Source of the DNA: Kordiimonas laminariae
GTDB lineage: Bacteria; Pseudomonadota; Alphaproteobacteria; Sphingomonadales; Kordiimonadaceae
DNA: 64,000 nt
Direction: 5' to 3'
Assembly (NCBI RefSeq): GCF_023008165.1
Contig: NZ_JAKQZA010000004.1
Span: 248,001 to 312,000 of the forward strand
The number at the start of each line of letters is the position of its first letter. The stretch's first letter is position 1. Below, piece after piece: positions 52,571 through 61,368 of this stretch. The notes under the pieces were generated by a model. That model was not told where the DNA came from. It worked only from the letters and a program-made list of their open reading frames with translations, and did not search any database. A program made the translations under genes and the position numbers.

Positions 52571-52799
52571 TTGTGCTTGCACAGTACGAGACGCAGGATC
52601 GCATATTTTATTTGCTGAAGACGATCAAATGTAGAAGGGGAGCATTATCGGTGTCGTTCAAGGGAGCAAAGATGTGAAGGTCACGTTCCTGTGATGCTTG
52701 TATAGCCTTTTATCATTGCCGATAAAATGCCGCATTTTCTATTCAGTGTTGGTTTCGTTGAGTGTATTTTGATTTCTAAAAGTTGCGATGGTGGGGCGT

Positions 52800-54485
52800 A
52801 TGACTGATATTTTAGGTACTGAGAACGACGATACTATAATTGGTACTGGCGGCAATGATGTTATTCGGGGCTTGGGCGGGAACGATTCTATCCTTGGCGG
52901 AGCAGGTAATGACACTTTGATTGGCGGCCTTGGAGCAGATGTGCTCGATGGTGGCGAGGGCATTGATACGATTGATTATAGTGCTTCATCTGCCGGGTTT
53001 CTCATGACCTCTTTGGGGGTCGTTGTGGGATTCCCAAATCCTCTTGCAGGTTCTGGAGCTTTTGATGTCCTCAGCAATTTTGAAAATGTAATAGGTTCCG
53101 TTTTTGCCGATGAGATATTTGGCAATGAAGCTGACAATATTCTGGACGGAAATGGTGGTAACGATTTTCTGCAAGGGTTTGAAGGGGATGATACTCTAAT
53201 CGGTGCAGAAGGTACCAGTTCTGCCGCTCTGTATTTCTCGTCTGACGAAGCTGTTTCAATCAACCTTGCTACAGGCGAAAACCCATCGGGTGGGCATGCT
53301 GAAGGAGATGTGTTGATTAACATAAGGCAACTGTTTGGCTCGCAGTTTAATGACCAATTAGTAGGCCTTGCAAATCAATCTACCACACTTGATGGCTTTA
53401 CTGGCAACGACTCTCTTATAGGCGGAACAGCTGGAGATAGGATTTCTGGCGGTAGTGGGAATGATACAATTGATGGTGACGGTGGCGCTGACAATATCAG
53501 GGGCGAAAATGGTAATGATTTTATCGAAGCGGGAGGGGGTAATGATTTTATCTCGGGTGGCAACGGGGATGATATAGCTTTCGGCGGCGCAGGCGATGAT
53601 GAAATCTTCGCGGGTTCAGGCGACGAAGGAAATGATTTGTTTGTTGGCGGCCTTGGAGATGATGTCCTTGGCGGCGGTGCAGGCAATGACACAATTGTTG
53701 GTGGTGTTAGCAACGTATCGGGTGTGAACAGCATTAATGCCAACGCGGGCAGTAACACCTTGTTTGGTGGCGCTGGTACAGATGTATTAATCGTCGGCGG
53801 GTTTGATGATCAGAACCTGGACGGTCGCTTCCAAAGCGGGGAGCAGATAACCTCTAGTACGACTGGTAACATTGCTTATGCAGGAGCTGATAATGATACG
53901 ATATACGGTGCTGCGGGCTCAGATGTTTTAGGTGGTGGTGACGGTGCTGATTATATTGAAGCAGGCGATGGTAATGATACGCTCTTTGGTGGACGTGAGA
54001 GCAACGGCGAAGCTTTGATACTAAATGATCAGCTAAACGGAGGCGCTGGCAACGATGTTATTTTTGCTGGCGCTGGTATAGACTCCCTGATGGGGGGAGA
54101 TGGCGCTGATAGTTTATTTGGCGGGGCCGGTAACGATACCATTAAAGGCGGCACTGGCGATGACAGTATTTTTGGAGGGGCTAGTCAGGATCGTCTGACT
54201 GGCGATGAGGGAGCGGATACTTTCTTCTTTGCTGGCCAACACGGAAGTGATCAGATTGAAGATTTCGATGTGGATGAAGATATCCTGTTCCTTGCTAATA
54301 CAGTGAATGATTTAAGCCAAATTGATAATGTACGTACTTTTGTCTTCGATGCTGTTTTAATGCCTAATGATGGTAGTGAAGACATATCTGGGGTGAGCAT
54401 TGATACCGGGGGTGGAGATATTTTTATTGTTGGTCTTACGCTTCAGGATTTTCTGGATGGTAATGTAAATTGGGTGCTTAGTTAA
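52800..54485 (+). CDS. RTX calcium-binding repeat protein, probably type I secreted
   Basis: 561 aa. Nonapeptide repeats of the GGxGxDxUx type cover residues about 15-60, 110-130, 195-305 and 360-470, forming calcium-bound parallel beta-rolls. A non-repeat insert with a FDVLSNFENVIGS segment follows the first block. The C-terminus (DTFFFAGQHGSDQIEDFDVDEDILFLANTV and terminal NWVLS) is the usual type I secretion signal region. No secretion ATPase or adaptor is near. ATG 52800 is used, with GGTGGGG upstream. It shares its C-terminal half with the next gene. Confidence 0.9.
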   Translation: MTDILGTENDDTIIGTGGNDVIRGLGGNDSILGGAGNDTLIGGLGADVLDGGEGIDTIDYSASSAGFLMTSLGVVVGFPNPLAGSGAFDVLSNFENVIGSVFADEIFGNEADNILDGNGGNDFLQGFEGDDTLIGAEGTSSAALYFSSDEAVSINLATGENPSGGHAEGDVLINIRQLFGSQFNDQLVGLANQSTTLDGFTGNDSLIGGTAGDRISGGSGNDTIDGDGGADNIRGENGNDFIEAGGGNDFISGGNGDDIAFGGAGDDEIFAGSGDEGNDLFVGGLGDDVLGGGAGNDTIVGGVSNVSGVNSINANAGSNTLFGGAGTDVLIVGGFDDQNLDGRFQSGEQITSSTTGNIAYAGADNDTIYGAAGSDVLGGGDGADYIEAGDGNDTLFGGRESNGEALILNDQLNGGAGNDVIFAGAGIDSLMGGDGADSLFGGAGNDTIKGGTGDDSIFGGASQDRLTGDEGADTFFFAGQHGSDQIEDFDVDEDILFLANTVNDLSQIDNVRTFVFDAVLMPNDGSEDISGVSIDTGGGDIFIVGLTLQDFLDGNVNWVLS

Positions 54486-54739
54486 ACCGCAGTGTGTCAG
54501 AGAATTAGACGTCATCCCTATATCCATATAAAACACTTATCAGACTGGTAGCCTATTGTTCCTGGTTGCTGGTTTTGATGCGCTCAGAGCTTAAAAAACT
54601 GGATATGTTTCATATGGTTGCCGTTATTGGGTTCAAAGTTTTTTAGACCTTTAGGTTTCATTTTTCTATTGAAGGGGACGTTCTAATTTATTACTCGTTG
54701 GAGGATATTGTTTAAGGCTTAACATGATTGGGGGACGCC

Positions 54740-57025
54740 ATGCCGACTGGCACAATTCATGGATCTATCAATGGCAACGATATCGAGCATCTTTTCACTG
54801 TGTTGGTTACAGAAAATGATGATGGGAACACATTAGATTTACCATTTTCTACTATTCATCAAATTACTCCTTTTGTAGTAAATGGCGATACCTATTTGGC
54901 TATTACGTCTCCTGAAAACAGGGGAGACACTTCGATCTTTAGATATAATACCGATAATTCGATCGGCTTTATTACTGATTTGAGTGAAATACCAAACTCT
55001 CTAGATGATGAACCAACTGCTGCTGAAGTTGTAGTTGTTAATGGTGAGCAAATTCTGTTGGTTTCAGATCGTGACGAAAGAGGTGTGCTTTCGTACCGAA
55101 TTAATAATGATGGAACTTTGGAGGTTGCTGGTGCCGTAACTGACAATGGCCGCACAACCGCCAGACTGGGAGCGGGGGAAGCTGTAACCACAGCCGAAGT
55201 TGATGGACAGACCTTTGCTTTTTCCGTGCGTCCGTTTGTAAACGGCGTAAGTAGCTTTTTGGTAAATCCCGATGGTAGTTTATCAGCTGCGGATGTACAG
55301 TTTAATAGTGGTAACGCAGCAGAGGTTGTTATTACTGACCTTACGGTAGCTCAAACTGCCGGGGGATCATATGTCATAACAACTAATCAGTTAGAAGATA
55401 CTTTATCTGTTTATTCCGTAGCTTCAAATGGTGCGCTAACTCAAATTGATGTTGTAACAGCTAGTGTCTCTCCCTCTCTTGATGCCCCTGTTGTGATTGA
55501 AACTATATATATAGGTAATACACCTTACATTTATGTCGCTAGCGGCTTTGGGGATGCAATTGAAGTTTTTAGCATGAGTGGCACAGGCCGATTGACGCAT
55601 CTTCAATCAATTACAAAGACGGCAGACATTGCTCTTGATCAACCACTTAGTTTAGTTCCCGCGATTTTAGATGGTCAGCAATATATTTTTGTCTCATCAG
55701 AGTTGAGCGACGGCGTAAGTGCTTTTGCTGTTGGTTCAGATGGACGTTTAACGCACGAGGAGAGTTTCTTCGATGATGCCACAATCGCTCTTGATGGCGT
55801 AACTGCAATTTCCGTATTTGGCGTAGGCCCTAATAATGAGGCAATCCTTGCAGCGGCAGGGGATAACGACAATGGCATTAGTTTCTTTAGCCTCAACGCT
55901 ACTTTCTCTGAGCCGACGGCTTCGCGTTTTAATGGCGCGTCTAACACCGATGAAATTACAGTCTTTAGAGGTGATGGCACGGACGATTTGGTGAATGCCG
56001 ATGGCGGTATTGATCGAGTGATCGGTGGAACTGGCGATGACAGCTTGAGTGGCGGCTATGGGGATGATTTTCTATCGGGCGGCACAGGTAATGACATTGT
56101 TCTTGGTGGTGAGGGGTTTGATCAAATATTTGCAGGTCCCGGCGACACTGGGGATGACATTTTTATTGGTGGCAGTGGACAGGACACCGTTGGCGGTGGA
56201 GCGGGTAACGACTTTATTGTCGGTGACTTTTTTCTGTCAGGTTCATTTGGCTCCCTAGATGTTGATGGGACAAGTAATGCCAATGGCTTTGATCATGATG
56301 ACGTACTCTATGGCGGGGCGGGGAATGATGTGATTATCGCTGGTACCTTCGAGGATGCTGGTGGCAACAATAGATTTGATTCAATAGATGAAGTTGGGCA
56401 GGGTTTTTCCGACAATGTTGCTTATGCCGGTTCTGGTAATGATACGGTGGTGGGGGAATGGACCGATATTCTCGGCGGCGGTGCCGGCAGCGATTTGATT
56501 TATGGCCTCAATGGTAGCGATACTATTTATGGTGGCCGTGAAAATGGTGTGGAGTTCGTTACGAACGATACACTAATTGGTGGTGCCGGTAATGATCTTA
56601 TATTTGCAGGTGAATCAAACGATTCAGTTGATGGTGGCGCCGACCATGATCAGCTTTTTGGGGGCTCCGGTAATGATACGATTGATGCTGGTAGCGGAGA
56701 TGACAGTATATATGGTGGCGCTGGTAACGATATTCTATTGGGAGGACAGGGCGCTGATACCTTCTATTTCTCCAATGCCCACGGCAATGATGAAATTCTC
56801 GATTTTAGTATAAGCGATGATACCTTGTTTTTGGCTAATACTGTTACAGATCTGAGTTTGATTGCTAATGTTGCTGACTTTATCTCCAATGAAACAAGGA
56901 CGGATGTGACATCGGGCACAGATGTGAACGGTGTTGTCATTGATACAGGTGGCGGAGAGATATTTATTCGTGGTCTGACATTAGCAGATTTCGAGAATAG
57001 CTCCGTTAATATAGTGTTGAGCTAA
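54740..57025 (+). CDS. RTX protein with N-terminal beta-propeller-like domain
   Basis: 761 aa. Residues about 20-390 are blade-like repeats: phrases such as VNGEQILLVSDRDERGVLSYRINNDGTL, QDTLSVYSVASNGAL-type and YIYVASGFGDAIEVFSMSGTGRL recur about every 45-50 residues and resemble a lactonase/WD-like propeller. From about 405 the RTX nonapeptide repeats begin, and the C-terminal 120 residues (DTFYFSNAHGNDEILDF, IDTGGGEIFIRGLTLADF) match the neighbouring RTX protein closely. Probably a secreted enzyme or adhesin. ATG 54740 follows GGGGGAC. Confidence 0.88.
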   Translation: MPTGTIHGSINGNDIEHLFTVLVTENDDGNTLDLPFSTIHQITPFVVNGDTYLAITSPENRGDTSIFRYNTDNSIGFITDLSEIPNSLDDEPTAAEVVVVNGEQILLVSDRDERGVLSYRINNDGTLEVAGAVTDNGRTTARLGAGEAVTTAEVDGQTFAFSVRPFVNGVSSFLVNPDGSLSAADVQFNSGNAAEVVITDLTVAQTAGGSYVITTNQLEDTLSVYSVASNGALTQIDVVTASVSPSLDAPVVIETIYIGNTPYIYVASGFGDAIEVFSMSGTGRLTHLQSITKTADIALDQPLSLVPAILDGQQYIFVSSELSDGVSAFAVGSDGRLTHEESFFDDATIALDGVTAISVFGVGPNNEAILAAAGDNDNGISFFSLNATFSEPTASRFNGASNTDEITVFRGDGTDDLVNADGGIDRVIGGTGDDSLSGGYGDDFLSGGTGNDIVLGGEGFDQIFAGPGDTGDDIFIGGSGQDTVGGGAGNDFIVGDFFLSGSFGSLDVDGTSNANGFDHDDVLYGGAGNDVIIAGTFEDAGGNNRFDSIDEVGQGFSDNVAYAGSGNDTVVGEWTDILGGGAGSDLIYGLNGSDTIYGGRENGVEFVTNDTLIGGAGNDLIFAGESNDSVDGGADHDQLFGGSGNDTIDAGSGDDSIYGGAGNDILLGGQGADTFYFSNAHGNDEILDFSISDDTLFLANTVTDLSLIANVADFISNETRTDVTSGTDVNGVVIDTGGGEIFIRGLTLADFENSSVNIVLS

Positions 57026-58132: not shown

Positions 58133-59194
58133 ATGAAGGCAAAATGGATTGGATATGGTTTAGGGGCCGCACTTGGCGTGTTTCTGGTATGGCCTTCAAA
58201 TATTGATGCTGTTTCTTACGAGCCGCCAGTGGATAAAGGCTTTACTGGGGATTTTTCCTTTAATGATGATCTGCACAGTGCAGAAGTGCTTTCTCTTCAG
58301 GATGGACATGGCCCAGAAGATGTTGCGGTAGATGCTGAAGGGCGTATCTATGGCGGGCTTCATGATGGGCGGGTTATTCGTCTTTCGTCAGATGGTAAAA
58401 ATCAGGAAACATTCGCAACTATTGAAGGTGGTAGGCCGCTTGGTCTTCATTTTGATAATGCAGGTAACCTTATTGTAGCAGATGCGTGGAAGGGGCTGCT
58501 GTCTTTCTCTCCAAGCGGTGAAATGACAGTTCTTTCAACGGAGCATGATGGCAGGCCATTTGAGTTTGCTGATGATCTTGATATCGCGAGTGATGGTAAG
58601 ATTTATTTCTCGGACGCAAGTGATAAATATAATCAGCCTGACTACCGCCTTGATTTGTTGGAAGCGCGCGGACATGGCAGATTACTTTCCTATGACCCTG
58701 CGACGGGTGAAACGAGCCTGCTCCTAGATGGGCTTTATTTCGCTAATGGTATTGCACTTTCAAAGAATGAGGATTTCGTGCTCGTGAATGAAACTGGCCG
58801 GTACCGCATTACGCGCTATTGGCTGAAAGGGGAAAAGGCAGGCGCAAGCGATATCTTTATCGATAATTTGCCAGGTTTCCCTGATGGTGTTTCTGCGAAC
58901 AGAAATGGTATCTTCTGGCTTGCTATCCCAAGCCCTAGAAACCCCGCTATGGATAGTGCTCATCCAACACCGTGGCTAAAGGGGCTCATATCGAAATTAC
59001 CAACTTTTATGCAGCCGTCCGCTATTAAGCAAGGCACGGTTATCGGTGTTAATGAACGGGGTGAAGTTGTTCGTACCCTTCATGACCGTGATGGCGATAA
59101 GGTGTTTATGATTACATCCGCGGAGCAGGTGGGCGATCAGCTCTACTTAGGCAGTCTTGAAGCCCCGCAGATTGTGCGTTTTAAGCTTAGGTAA
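58133..59194 (+). CDS. Strictosidine synthase/SMP-30-like six-blade propeller
   Basis: 353 aa. N-terminal hydrophobic anchor (KWIGYGLGAALGVFLVW), then blade motifs GPEDVAVDAEGRIYGGLHDGRVIRL, GRPLGLHFDNAGNLIVADAWKGLL, FADDLDIASDGKIYFSDAS and FPDGVSANRNGIFWLAIPSP. Resembles the strictosidine synthase-like/adipocyte membrane protein group, which holds calcium and hydrolyses lactones or esters. Natural substrate unknown. Its last 8 nt overlap the convergent GPP34 gene. Confidence 0.9.
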   Translation: MKAKWIGYGLGAALGVFLVWPSNIDAVSYEPPVDKGFTGDFSFNDDLHSAEVLSLQDGHGPEDVAVDAEGRIYGGLHDGRVIRLSSDGKNQETFATIEGGRPLGLHFDNAGNLIVADAWKGLLSFSPSGEMTVLSTEHDGRPFEFADDLDIASDGKIYFSDASDKYNQPDYRLDLLEARGHGRLLSYDPATGETSLLLDGLYFANGIALSKNEDFVLVNETGRYRITRYWLKGEKAGASDIFIDNLPGFPDGVSANRNGIFWLAIPSPRNPAMDSAHPTPWLKGLISKLPTFMQPSAIKQGTVIGVNERGEVVRTLHDRDGDKVFMITSAEQVGDQLYLGSLEAPQIVRFKLR

Positions 59195-59885
59195 TAACTG
59201 TTGTCACCATGATGGGAACCATGGTGGCAACCATAATAGCGGTTTGTGCAGCTTCCGCGGCTTTCTGAGCTGCTTCACTAACAAGATTACCTTCGGTAAT
59301 TTCCTTCATCCGGTGGCGACGTTCTTTCAGAGCCTTGCCTTCAAACGGAATTTTCAGAAGTTCTGATTTTCTAAGAAGTGACAGAAGTACCAATGTACGT
59401 TCATCAATTTCTCGGGTTTCTGTGAAAATAGCTTTTTCAAGCCGGGCAACCAAATCTTGTTCTGGTCTCGGGTTCAGTTCTGGGTAATAGGTTTTATCAA
59501 AGAAGAAAAAGGCTTTCCCTTCAACGGCTTTAAGGATGCCTCGCCCACACAGGCCCTCTGCAATACGTTCTCGTAAGTTTTTGATTGCTGCAAATTTTGA
59601 AAGCCAGTGGTTGGCTCCTCGATCTTTCTTGTCTTCGTTTACAAGGTTGAGGGCCGTATTAAGTAGCTCATTTTCGGTTTGTTCGTTTGAAAGCAATTTC
59701 ACTGTGAAATTGTCGTCTTTTTGAACTTCGATCCGACCAAGCATGATCAGTTCGGCCATAACGGCAGAGGCAACGTGGCTTCCGTAAATATAGGCAGCGT
59801 TTGTCTCTAGCTTTCCATCCTCCTCACGGAGTGAAAGCAGCATAATTTCTTCATGGAAATAGAGATTATCTTTTTGATTTGTCAT
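59187..59885 (-). CDS. GPP34 (GOLPH3/Vps74-like) family protein
   Basis: 232 aa. The opening LYFHEEIMLLSLREEDGKL, the helix ASAVMAELIMLGRIEV and the long helical body with LVARLEKAIFTETREIDERTLVLLSLLRKSELL match the GPP34 fold, which in yeast and animals binds PI4P at the Golgi. The C-terminus is a hydrophobic tail (TAIMVATMVPIMVTTVIT), possibly a membrane anchor. It follows fliP by 55 nt on the same strand, with its own GAGGGAGA ribosome site, so it may be read with the flagellar genes. Function in bacteria is not established. Confidence 0.78.
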   Translation of the reverse strand: MTNQKDNLYFHEEIMLLSLREEDGKLETNAAYIYGSHVASAVMAELIMLGRIEVQKDDNFTVKLLSNEQTENELLNTALNLVNEDKKDRGANHWLSKFAAIKNLRERIAEGLCGRGILKAVEGKAFFFFDKTYYPELNPRPEQDLVARLEKAIFTETREIDERTLVLLSLLRKSELLKIPFEGKALKERRHRMKEITEGNLVSEAAQKAAEAAQTAIMVATMVPIMVTTVIT

Positions 59886-59940
59886 CTAATTTCTCCCTCG
59901 CAATAGAATATATTGGAATAAAGGGAGATAATTCAAGATT

Positions 59941-60762
59941 TTACCCGCCCACTCCGGGTGGCGGTGCCTGACCAAAACTTTGAACCAGCGAACCTGCTAC
60001 CAAATTCCAACCATCCACCAAAACAAAGAAAATTAGCTTGAATGGGGTGGCAATCATAACCGGGGGTAACATCATCATACCCATAGACATCAGGATGGAA
60101 GCAACCACCATATCAATCACTACAAATGGTATATAAAGAAGAAATCCAATTTCAAAGGCACGCCTAATCTCACTAATCATGAAAGCTGGTACCAGTGTCG
60201 TCATAGGAACTGTATCTGGTGTGGTGGTAGAAATGTTTTCGCCCGATAAATCCACAAATAAAGCAAGGTCTTTCTCGCGCACTTGAGAAAGCATAAAGTT
60301 TCTAAGGGGTACGGAGGCGCGGTTATAGGCCTCAACCTCATCAATTTCTTCGTTCACTAGCGGTTCAATACCAAGGGTATAAACCTCGGTGAGGGTTGGG
60401 GCCATTACATAGCCGGTTAGGAACAGAGCAAGTGAGATGATCACCATGTTAGGCGGTGTTTGCTGGGTTCCCATCGCGCTTCTGAGAAGAGAAAATACAA
60501 TCACCATACGAGTGAAGCTGGTCATCATGATCAAAATACTTGGTGCTAAGCTAAGCACCGTAAGCAAAAGGATCATTTGAACCACGCGGCCACTTAACGT
60601 GCCACTTTCACCAAGGTTGATATTTATGCCTGGTGTTTCCTGTGCCAGCGCATCGGGGGCAAACATAAAAGAGCCTGCCACCAAAAGTGGTAGGAAAAAG
60701 AAAAAGGATTTTAGGATCAAACCCTTATGAAATTTAAGAGAGTTTATCTTCAGGTGTTTCAT
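59941..60762 (-). CDS. fliP: Flagellar biosynthesis protein FliP
   Basis: 273 aa from ATG 60762. Core export-gate subunit. After a long leader ([22 protein letters not shown]) come the FliP motifs [108 protein letters not shown]. The ATG lies within the fliO gene (29-nt overlap). A TTG 9 nt upstream is the alternative. Start is not fixed by a strong ribosome site. Confidence 0.95.
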
Positions 60763-61045
60763 CTTTTTCAACTAACTCTTTAAAGGCAACATCTGCTTCT
60801 GAAATAGTTTGTGTTCCGCCTGGGTTTGTAGCGATTAAATATTCTTTGTTTTTCCACCGGACAACAACCAGGCGATTTCGGCCATCAAGAAGCTTGCTTT
60901 CAAGGACTTCCAGTTGTTTCTCGCCGCCTTTAATGCGAGGCTGGCCGGGAAGTAGGCCAAGGCGCTTAACCGCCCATGACATGCCCACCATTAATGCAAG
61001 TACAAACAGCAAAGCTGCAAAAGCGACGAGAGTATCTCCAATCAT
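60734..61045 (-). CDS. fliO: Flagellar biosynthetic protein FliO
   Basis: 103 aa. One N-terminal membrane helix ([31 protein letters not shown]) and a small cytoplasmic domain with [26 protein letters not shown], matching the short FliO family. Helps assemble FliP in the export gate. Overlaps the upstream FlhB-domain gene by 4 nt (ATGA) and fliP downstream. Confidence 0.9.
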
Positions 61046-61368
61046 GCTTTTTGGTGCCCTTCTTGCTGTCTGGTTTGTTCTTGTTGGCGTTTCATTTTTT
61101 CATTCTCGGCATATACACGCTCTAAAATGATTGAAACAGTATTTAATGCTTCGAGAGGAACAGGGCAATCAACATCTAGTGCGCTCAAAAGTTCGGTAAG
61201 ATCTTTATCCTGGCGAACCTTGACATCTTTAGCGAAGGCAATTTCCAGAAGTCTGTCAGCCAATACACCTTCTGCTTTGGCTGTGATAACCGGAGCCAAG
61301 GCTTCGGAATGCTGTTTGACAGCAACAACTTTCGTTAGGTCTTTTTCTTGATCGTTTTCTGAATTCAT
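61042..61368 (-). CDS. FlhB C-terminal-domain-like protein (EscU/YscU type, FhlB-like)
   Basis: 108 aa, soluble. KVVAVKQHSEALAPVITAKAEGVLADRLLEIAFAKDVKVRQDKDLTELLSALDVDCPVPLEALNTVSIILERVY corresponds to the cytoplasmic domain of the export-switch proteins FlhB/EscU, without the membrane part and without the NPTH autocleavage motif. Stand-alone versions (FhlB) exist in some bacteria and can substitute for the FlhB C-terminus. First gene of the fliO-fliP unit. Full-length flhB is also present at the end of the window. Confidence 0.85.
   Translation of the reverse strand: MNSENDQEKDLTKVVAVKQHSEALAPVITAKAEGVLADRLLEIAFAKDVKVRQDKDLTELLSALDVDCPVPLEALNTVSIILERVYAENEKMKRQQEQTRQQEGHQKA

What the first reader, a model, noticed from the sequence alone, without database searches (positions are those of the whole stretch)
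59187..61368. GPP34 (GOLPH3-type) gene placed directly behind fliP
A bacterial member of the eukaryotic Golgi PI4P-binding family sits 55 nt after fliP on the same strand, with a strong ribosome site and a hydrophobic C-terminal tail. I know of GPP34 mainly from actinobacteria among bacteria; a place in a flagellar export operon of a Gram-negative suggests a role in membrane recruitment or flagellar assembly. Co-transcription is inferred.
Basis: partly seen in the sequence, partly recalled or inferred. Interest (0 to 1): 0.72.

Follow-up and report, generated by a model that had tools for sequence, protein, structure and literature searches.

The report
Golgi-type GPP34 gene behind fliP
A real bacterial relative of the Golgi protein GOLPH3 sits right behind a flagellar gene, but it looks like an occasional passenger gene at that spot rather than a part of the flagellum.

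Summary
In detail: 59187-59885 (-) encodes a 232-aa GPP34 protein (PF05719, 3.1e-40) 55 nt behind fliP, with a GOLPH3-like predicted fold. It belongs to a 12-row GPP34 clade (99/99) with a hydrophobic C-terminal tail, seen also in two other families of the class and in an Acidobacteriota MAG. In the window's family all 4 GPP34 genomes (two genera, one GPP34 clade) carry it at the same junction, but 23 of 27 fliP-bearing genomes lack it, one of the four copies has an in-frame stop, and other species have other genes there. In 385 class genomes, 9 of 29 GPP34 carriers have flagellar rod genes against 223 of 356 non-carriers. The PI4P pocket is not kept; the membrane hairpin is. The gene is under selection in the window's genome and its sister (dN/dS 0.03). 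Best reading: an accessory, membrane-inserted GPP34 adaptor that rides on the fliO-fliP transcript and is not a flagellar part. Side finding: STAS-GPP34 gene pairs in 9 of 29 other loci of the class.

The parts
59187..59885 (-). GPP34 (PF05719) protein, 232 aa
   Evidence: Pfam 3.1e-40; AlphaFold model pLDDT 81, pTM 0.80; Foldseek best hits GOLPH3/Vps74; dN/dS 0.032 against G013
59190..59252 (-). uncharged hydrophobic C-terminal tail, residues 212-232
   Evidence: hydropathy 1.53-2.47 in 12 of 12 tail-clade rows, at most 1.31 in 23 of the 28 other tree rows; the 5 fused rows cannot be compared
59487..59525 (-). predicted beta-hairpin (residues 121-133) with FFFF tip, counterpart of the GOLPH3 190-201 hairpin
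   Evidence: strands 121-125 and 129-133 in the model; alignment to GOLPH3; hairpin role from passages of PMC13408441
59893..59899 (-). Shine-Dalgarno-like GAGGGAG, 7 nt before ATG
   Evidence: read from sequence; purine-rich counterparts in G027 and G020
59907..59936 (-). promoter-like TTGAAT-N18-TATATT in the gap, uncertain
   Evidence: 21% of shuffles do as well
59941..60771 (-). fliP (TTG start as listed; an ATG lies 9 nt further in)
   Evidence: Pfam 3.8e-81, TIGR01103 5e-88
60734..61045 (-). fliO
   Evidence: PF04347 6.3e-9; TIGR03500 3.1e-13, just below its cut-off
61042..61368 (-). FlhB C-terminal-domain-like small protein
   Evidence: PF01312 1e-5; TIGR00789 flhB_rel 2e-10, below its cut-off
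58133..59194 (+). convergent strictosidine-synthase-like gene, the usual neighbour of fliP in this family
   Evidence: PF03088 3.4e-28; next gene behind fliP in 15 of 27 loci

Best explanation
The gene is an accessory GPP34 of a tail-bearing bacterial clade. It most likely entered the 3' end of the flhB'-fliO-fliP gene run once in this bacterial family and was then lost in most lineages. It is probably translated from read-through of the fliO-fliP message, with its own good ribosome site. The protein folds like GOLPH3 and lies on the inner face of the cytoplasmic membrane, held by the hydrophobic FFFF hairpin and by the uncharged C-terminal tail rather than by PI4P. There it probably acts as an adaptor that holds other membrane or envelope proteins by their short cytoplasmic tails, in the way GOLPH3 holds glycosyltransferases. 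Shown: family, predicted fold, position, tail as a clade trait, loss of pocket residues in the alignment, purifying selection between two genomes. Inferred: membrane insertion, adaptor action, read-through, single entry. Its clients are unknown; it is not a flagellar component.
For: GPP34 by HMM and by fold (E 2.5e-11, TM 0.77 to 9qpq_B). Of the four PI4P residues named in PMC13408441 (W81, R90, R171, R174) the window has N29, A39, K102, R105 by the phmmer alignment. No row of 27 bacterial sequences has W at the first or R at the second column. The tail is in 12 of 12 tail-clade rows and in none of 23 comparable others. Not flagellar: of 27 fliP-bearing genomes of the family 4 have GPP34 and 23 do not, among them G009, G004 and G008, which group with G000/G013 (91/88). 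The G020 copy has an in-frame TGA while its fliP frame is open and 6 rod-gene matches are present. The G805 and Acidobacteriota relatives, seen on both sides, are not beside flagellar genes. G009 has a 2OG-Fe(II) oxygenase about 26 nt behind fliP on the same strand. Class-wide, 9 of 29 GPP34 carriers have rod genes against 223 of 356 non-carriers, Fisher p 0.0013, not corrected for kinship.
Against: The fliP-GPP34 order is kept in two genera although the proteins are only 36-39% identical, which could mean selection to stay together. All 11 tail-clade genomes examined have flagellar rod genes (10, the 11.6-Mb Acidobacteriota assembly), though in f8, where the family's 32 held genomes were searched, 28 do anyway. 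In G828 and G830 the contig ends within about 350 nt upstream of GPP34, so their upstream neighbour is unseen. The in-frame stop of G020 could be a sequencing error. The AlphaFold tail is of low confidence (residues 220-232 under 50), so membrane insertion of the tail is not shown. The W81 and R90 columns lie near an alignment gap. No transcript or protein data were available.
Confidence: 0.72

Rival explanations
1. It is a lineage-specific flagellar helper: a membrane adaptor made with FliO and FliP that helps to place or stabilise the export gate.
For: Position 55 nt behind fliP on the same strand; order kept in two genera, the four proteins one clade; flagellar rod genes in all 11 tail-clade genomes examined; dN/dS like that of fliP.
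Against: Absent in 23 of 27 fliP-bearing relatives; interrupted in G020; tail-clade relatives with both sides seen are not next to flagellar genes; unrelated genes take the same place; carriers class-wide have flagella less often.
Confidence: 0.1
2. It is a neutral passenger on its way out, with no lasting role.
For: Patchy presence; in-frame stop in G020; about 50% identity between the G020 and G027 copies while the flanking proteins keep 79-93%.
Against: Between G000 and G013, 19 nucleotide but only 2 amino-acid differences, dN/dS 0.032.
Confidence: 0.13
3. It is a true PI4P effector like GOLPH3, with a bacterial phosphoinositide as ligand.
For: Same predicted fold and hairpin; K102 and R105 at the places of R171 and R174.
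Against: W81 and R90, the latter needed for Golgi localisation (PMC13408441 passages), are N29 and A39; R174 is also lost in G027 and the f8 proteins.
Confidence: 0.04

Closest known systems
GOLPH3 / Vps74 (PDB 3kn1, 9qpq, 2zih)
   Same: Pfam family, fold (Foldseek TM 0.68-0.77 over the query for the best seven of eight chains), hydrophobic beta-hairpin with FFFF in place of FLLF
   Different: Lacks W81 and R90 of the PI4P pocket, has no N-terminal COPI-binding region, has an uncharged C-terminal tail; bacterial
SCO4440 of Streptomyces coelicolor (GOLPH3-like, PMC12402492, passages read)
   Same: Bacterial GPP34 protein; there coupled with a D-Ala-D-Ala carboxypeptidase gene and linked to peptidoglycan changes
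   Different: Different neighbours; not compared by sequence here
Canonical GPP34 of the same class (L005-L033)
   Same: Pfam family, hairpin and a common YP motif
   Different: Other C-terminal end; 18-27% identical to the window protein in the 16 rows; a STAS gene beside GPP34 in 9 of 29 loci, none at the window
Tail-clade GPP34 of family f8 (G805, G828, G830) and Acidobacteriota MAG JASJCB010000141 (L082)
   Same: Same clade (99/99), same kind of tail, 34-41% identical
   Different: Where both sides are seen (G805, L082) not next to fliP: beside a gene with a weak cytochrome c' match below the cut-off, or as a tandem pair beside an RND-type pump (the latter name recalled, not searched)

Membership tests
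GPP34 (PF05719) | Match above the curated cut-off over the full model | tested here: met
   138.8 bits against 29.1, model 3-200 of 201
GPP34 (PF05719) | GOLPH3/Vps74 fold | tested here: met
   Foldseek E 2.5e-11 to 3.2e-7 for eight GOLPH3/Vps74 chains, next hit 0.5; a prediction, not a solved structure
GOLPH3/Vps74 PI4P effectors | PI4P pocket W81, R90, R171, R174 | tested here: not met
   N29, A39, K102, R105 by the alignment; columns of 27 rows
GOLPH3/Vps74 PI4P effectors | Hydrophobic beta-hairpin 190-201 | tested here: met
   FFFF at 126-129 against FLLF, predicted strands 121-125 and 129-133
GOLPH3/Vps74 PI4P effectors | Flexible N-terminal COPI-binding region, residues 1-58 | tested here: not met
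   Window residue 6 aligns with GOLPH3 residue 58; region as described in PMC12494035 passages
GOLPH3/Vps74 PI4P effectors | PI4P binding and acidic client-binding face | not testable with these tools
   Needs lipid and tail binding assays; surface charge was not computed
Flagellar export apparatus or helper | Occurs with flagella and fliP across relatives | tested here: not met
   4 of 27 fliP-bearing family genomes; 9 of 29 carriers with rod genes against 223 of 356 non-carriers in the class
Flagellar export apparatus or helper | Conserved place next to flagellar genes | tested here: inconclusive
   4 of 4 within the family, one clade. Of 26 other GPP34 neighbourhoods none was recognised as flagellar: 23 by BLAST against one 20-kb stretch of the window's genome with mechanical gene calls, 3 by reading ORFs, two of these cut off upstream
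Flagellar export apparatus or helper | Motility phenotype | not testable with these tools
   Needs a deletion strain

The most novel reading that the evidence does not exclude
The tail-clade GPP34 has been taken into the flagellar export operon of one bacterial family as a membrane-inserted chaperone or adaptor for FliO/FliP, a bacterial use of the GOLPH3 fold in building a membrane machine.
Probability: 0.08. Interest if true: 0.7.

Novelty: new member of a known kind. Interest (0 to 1): 0.27.

Why it matters
Bacterial GPP34 proteins have almost no described function; the one study my searches turned up (PMC12402492, passages read) ties a Streptomyces one to peptidoglycan and says such proteins had not been described in prokaryotes. 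This case separates two things that the place behind fliP invites one to merge: a shared transcript and a shared function. It also shows a clade of bacterial GPP34 without the PI4P pocket but with the hairpin and a hydrophobic tail, which makes a PI4P-independent membrane use of the fold directly testable. If the side finding holds, GPP34 in other bacteria of this class may be under partner-switch (STAS/SpoIIE) control.

Tried and rejected
Phage and plasmid origin: tblastn of the protein against 50,697 phage and 72,556 plasmid records gave no match, and a viral-contig scan with two short peptide patterns gave none. Recent transfer judged by base composition: GC 43.3% and GC3 39.5% lie within the range of the neighbours, so no sign of it. 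A recent swap of the whole fliP region between the two genera: identities G000-G027 (FliP 76%, strictosidine-like 71%) are no higher than G000-G008 for FliP (77%) and about the same as G000-G003 for the other (71%), so no sign of it; an old gain with losses and an old transfer cannot be told apart (fewest changes 2). Own promoter: TTGAA-type sites in three gaps, reached by 21%, 35% and 4% of shuffles; left open. Literature: searches for GPP34 with bacteria, GOLPH3 with bacterial terms, GOLPH3/Vps74 with bacteria, 'GPP34 family phosphoprotein', fliP with GOLPH3, PF05719 with flagellar, GPP34 with STAS domain, and GOLPH3/STAS/SpoIIE showed no paper on a flagellar or a STAS link in the listed rows; the first is swamped by an insecticidal protein of the same name, and in the fliP search the term also matches 'flip' and 'flippase'.

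Rows dropped or altered: L032 (partial match) was left out of the GPP34 tree; G020 went in with X at its stop; fliO was left out of the species tree; alignment A2 and the fold used 27 of the 40 tree rows (left out: the broken one, five fused ones and seven others). The genome-contig scan used two narrow peptide patterns and found one locus, so named relatives are under-sampled. Gene calls in GC-rich loci are mechanical and partly wrong; there three neighbour ORFs (two in L075, one in L076) matched two long proteins of the 20-kb stretch that I did not identify. Of the 48 neighbour genes picked, 35 were scanned together (which names counts, not loci); some others were scanned singly, not all.
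Full report
What is there. On the minus strand four genes run FlhB-like (61368-61042), fliO (61045-60734), fliP (60771-59941) and a GPP34 gene (59885-59187); they end tail to tail with a strictosidine-synthase-like gene on the plus strand (58133-59194), with 8 nt of overlap. The GPP34 protein matches PF05719 at 138.8 bits (cut-off 29.1), finds human GOLPH3 and yeast Vps74 by phmmer, and its AlphaFold model (27 sequences, pLDDT 81.3, pTM 0.80) has GOLPH3/Vps74 as its only PDB neighbours at E below 0.001: eight chains at 3.2e-7 or better, next hit 0.5.

Host. The 12 rows listed of 441 plasmid records that match FliP are Methylobacterium, Azospirillum, Acetobacter and Erythrobacter, alphaproteobacteria from recall, so I take the class to be Alphaproteobacteria; this is an inference.

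How often the pair occurs. In the family (29 genomes held and searched) fliP is found in 27; the two without are 76% and 80% complete. GPP34 is present in four genomes of two genera, each time directly behind fliP and before the strictosidine-like gene. The other 23 have no GPP34 there: the strictosidine-like gene follows fliP directly in 15, and in 8 another ORF comes first. These are VOC-like in G005, G011 and G024 (BLAST to the window's VOC gene); an OmdA/DUF1801 gene in G001; a release-factor-like ORF in G008 (name recalled); unnamed ORFs in G016 and G017; and in G009 a 2OG-Fe(II) oxygenase on the same strand as fliP, 26 nt behind it if the first internal ATG is its start. The place behind fliP thus takes in different genes. 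G009, G004 and G008 group with the two window-type genomes in a four-gene tree (91/88) and lack GPP34.

Origin. In a tree of 40 GPP34 rows the four fliP-linked proteins form one clade (98/84), inside a 12-row clade (99/99) with three genomes of family f8 of the same order, three of family f153 of the class and the tandem pair of an Acidobacteriota MAG (loci). A single arrival at fliP in this family is the simplest reading, followed by losses or an old transfer; the species tree needs at least two changes and cannot choose. The G805 (f8) and Acidobacteriota copies, seen on both sides, are not beside fliP; for G828 and G830 the contig ends close upstream. Of 23 other GPP34 neighbourhoods compared by BLAST with a 20-kb flagellar stretch of the window's genome, three neighbour ORFs (in L075 and L076) matched two long proteins there whose nature I did not determine, and the rest matched nothing of it; one of the three ORFs has response-regulator and SpoIIE domains. 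That 20-kb stretch does not hold all flagellar genes.

Selection and decay. Between the window's genome and G013 the GPP34 gene has 19 nucleotide but 2 amino-acid differences, dN/dS 0.032, like fliP at 0.029, so it is kept for something. In G020 the frame has an in-frame TGA that leaves 104 and 131 aa, while fliP is open and six flagellar-rod matches exist. The G020 and G027 copies are about 50% identical while five flanking proteins keep 79-93%.

Flagella and GPP34 across the class. Of the same 385 genomes, 29 have GPP34 and 232 have flagellar rod genes. Of the 29 carriers 9 have rod genes, against 223 of 356 non-carriers; Fisher p 0.0013, without correction for kinship. Telling against my reading: all 11 tail-clade genomes examined have rod genes (10; the Acidobacteriota assembly, 11.6 Mb and perhaps mixed). 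In f8, however, 28 of 32 genomes have them anyway and in the window's family 27 of 29 have fliP, so this says little.

Anatomy. PMC13408441 (passages read) names W81, R90, R171 and R174 as PI4P residues, a hydrophobic hairpin at 190-201 that inserts into the bilayer, and acidic residues that hold basic tails of client enzymes. PMC12494035 (passages) agrees on hairpin and acidic face, PMC8421267 (passages) on the acidic patch. By the alignment the window has N29, A39, K102 and R105 in place of the four residues, and FFFF in place of FLLF at the hairpin tip. In 27 bacterial rows none has W at the first or R at the second column; these columns lie near a gap, so the mapping is less sure than for the other two. 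The tail clade has an uncharged end of 16-23 residues with a 19-residue hydropathy of 1.53-2.47 in 12 of 12 rows; 23 of the 28 other rows reach at most 1.31, and 5 are fused to further domains and cannot be compared. I infer a protein held on the inner membrane by hairpin and tail. The model is of low confidence at the very end (residues 220-232 below 50), so tail insertion is a hypothesis.

Transcription. There is no terminator-like site between fliP and GPP34 on this strand. A TTGAA-type promoter-like pair occurs in the gaps of G000, G027 and G020, but 21%, 35% and 4% of shuffled gaps do as well. Read-through from fliP is likely but unproven.

Verdict. A genuine GPP34 protein, new as a member and well placed, whose position behind fliP is shared by four related genomes and is not a mark of flagellar function. 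The best analogy for how it works is GOLPH3 as a membrane adaptor, without PI4P. Among bacteria, SCO4440 of Streptomyces changes peptidoglycan composition and lies beside a carboxypeptidase gene (PMC12402492 passages); in one f153 genome a tail-clade GPP34 lies beside an L,D-transpeptidase gene. These two hints make an envelope enzyme the most likely kind of client, at low confidence.

Noticed in passing
L005, L006, L007, L012, L018, L021, L025, L026, L033: In GPP34 loci of the class outside the window's family a STAS (anti-anti-sigma-like) open frame lies next to GPP34 on the same strand, within about 60 nt, in 9 of 29 loci from six families (local profile; eight confirmed by Pfam, L006 by the profile alone). 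One neighbour is a response regulator with a SpoIIE phosphatase (L018 197-1360 -). No tail-clade locus searched showed it. This suggests GPP34 under partner-switch control; no paper seen in two searches.
   Followed up: partly
L022 1444-3402 (+): A single 653-aa open frame joins GPP34 to an MFS transporter (PF05719 1.3e-38, PF07690 2.4e-34).
   Followed up: no
L024, L028, L029, L030, L032: GPP34 fused to a C-terminal stretch of about 200 residues that begins WEWRAFW; no Pfam match beyond GPP34 at E 0.01 in the two scanned, L024 and L030. Possibly an undescribed domain.
   Followed up: partly
L097 7022-7699 (+): An L,D-transpeptidase (YkuD_2, 4.1e-48) directly behind a tail-clade GPP34 in family f153; L099 has an ORF of like size at the same place, not scanned.
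   Followed up: partly
L082 5023-6693 (+): Two tandem tail-clade GPP34 genes, 68% identical, in an Acidobacteriota MAG.
   Followed up: partly
window 52788-57025: Two adjacent large open frames (565 and 765 aa) rich in GGxGxD-like repeats, of the calcium-binding kind by eye; not searched.
   Followed up: no
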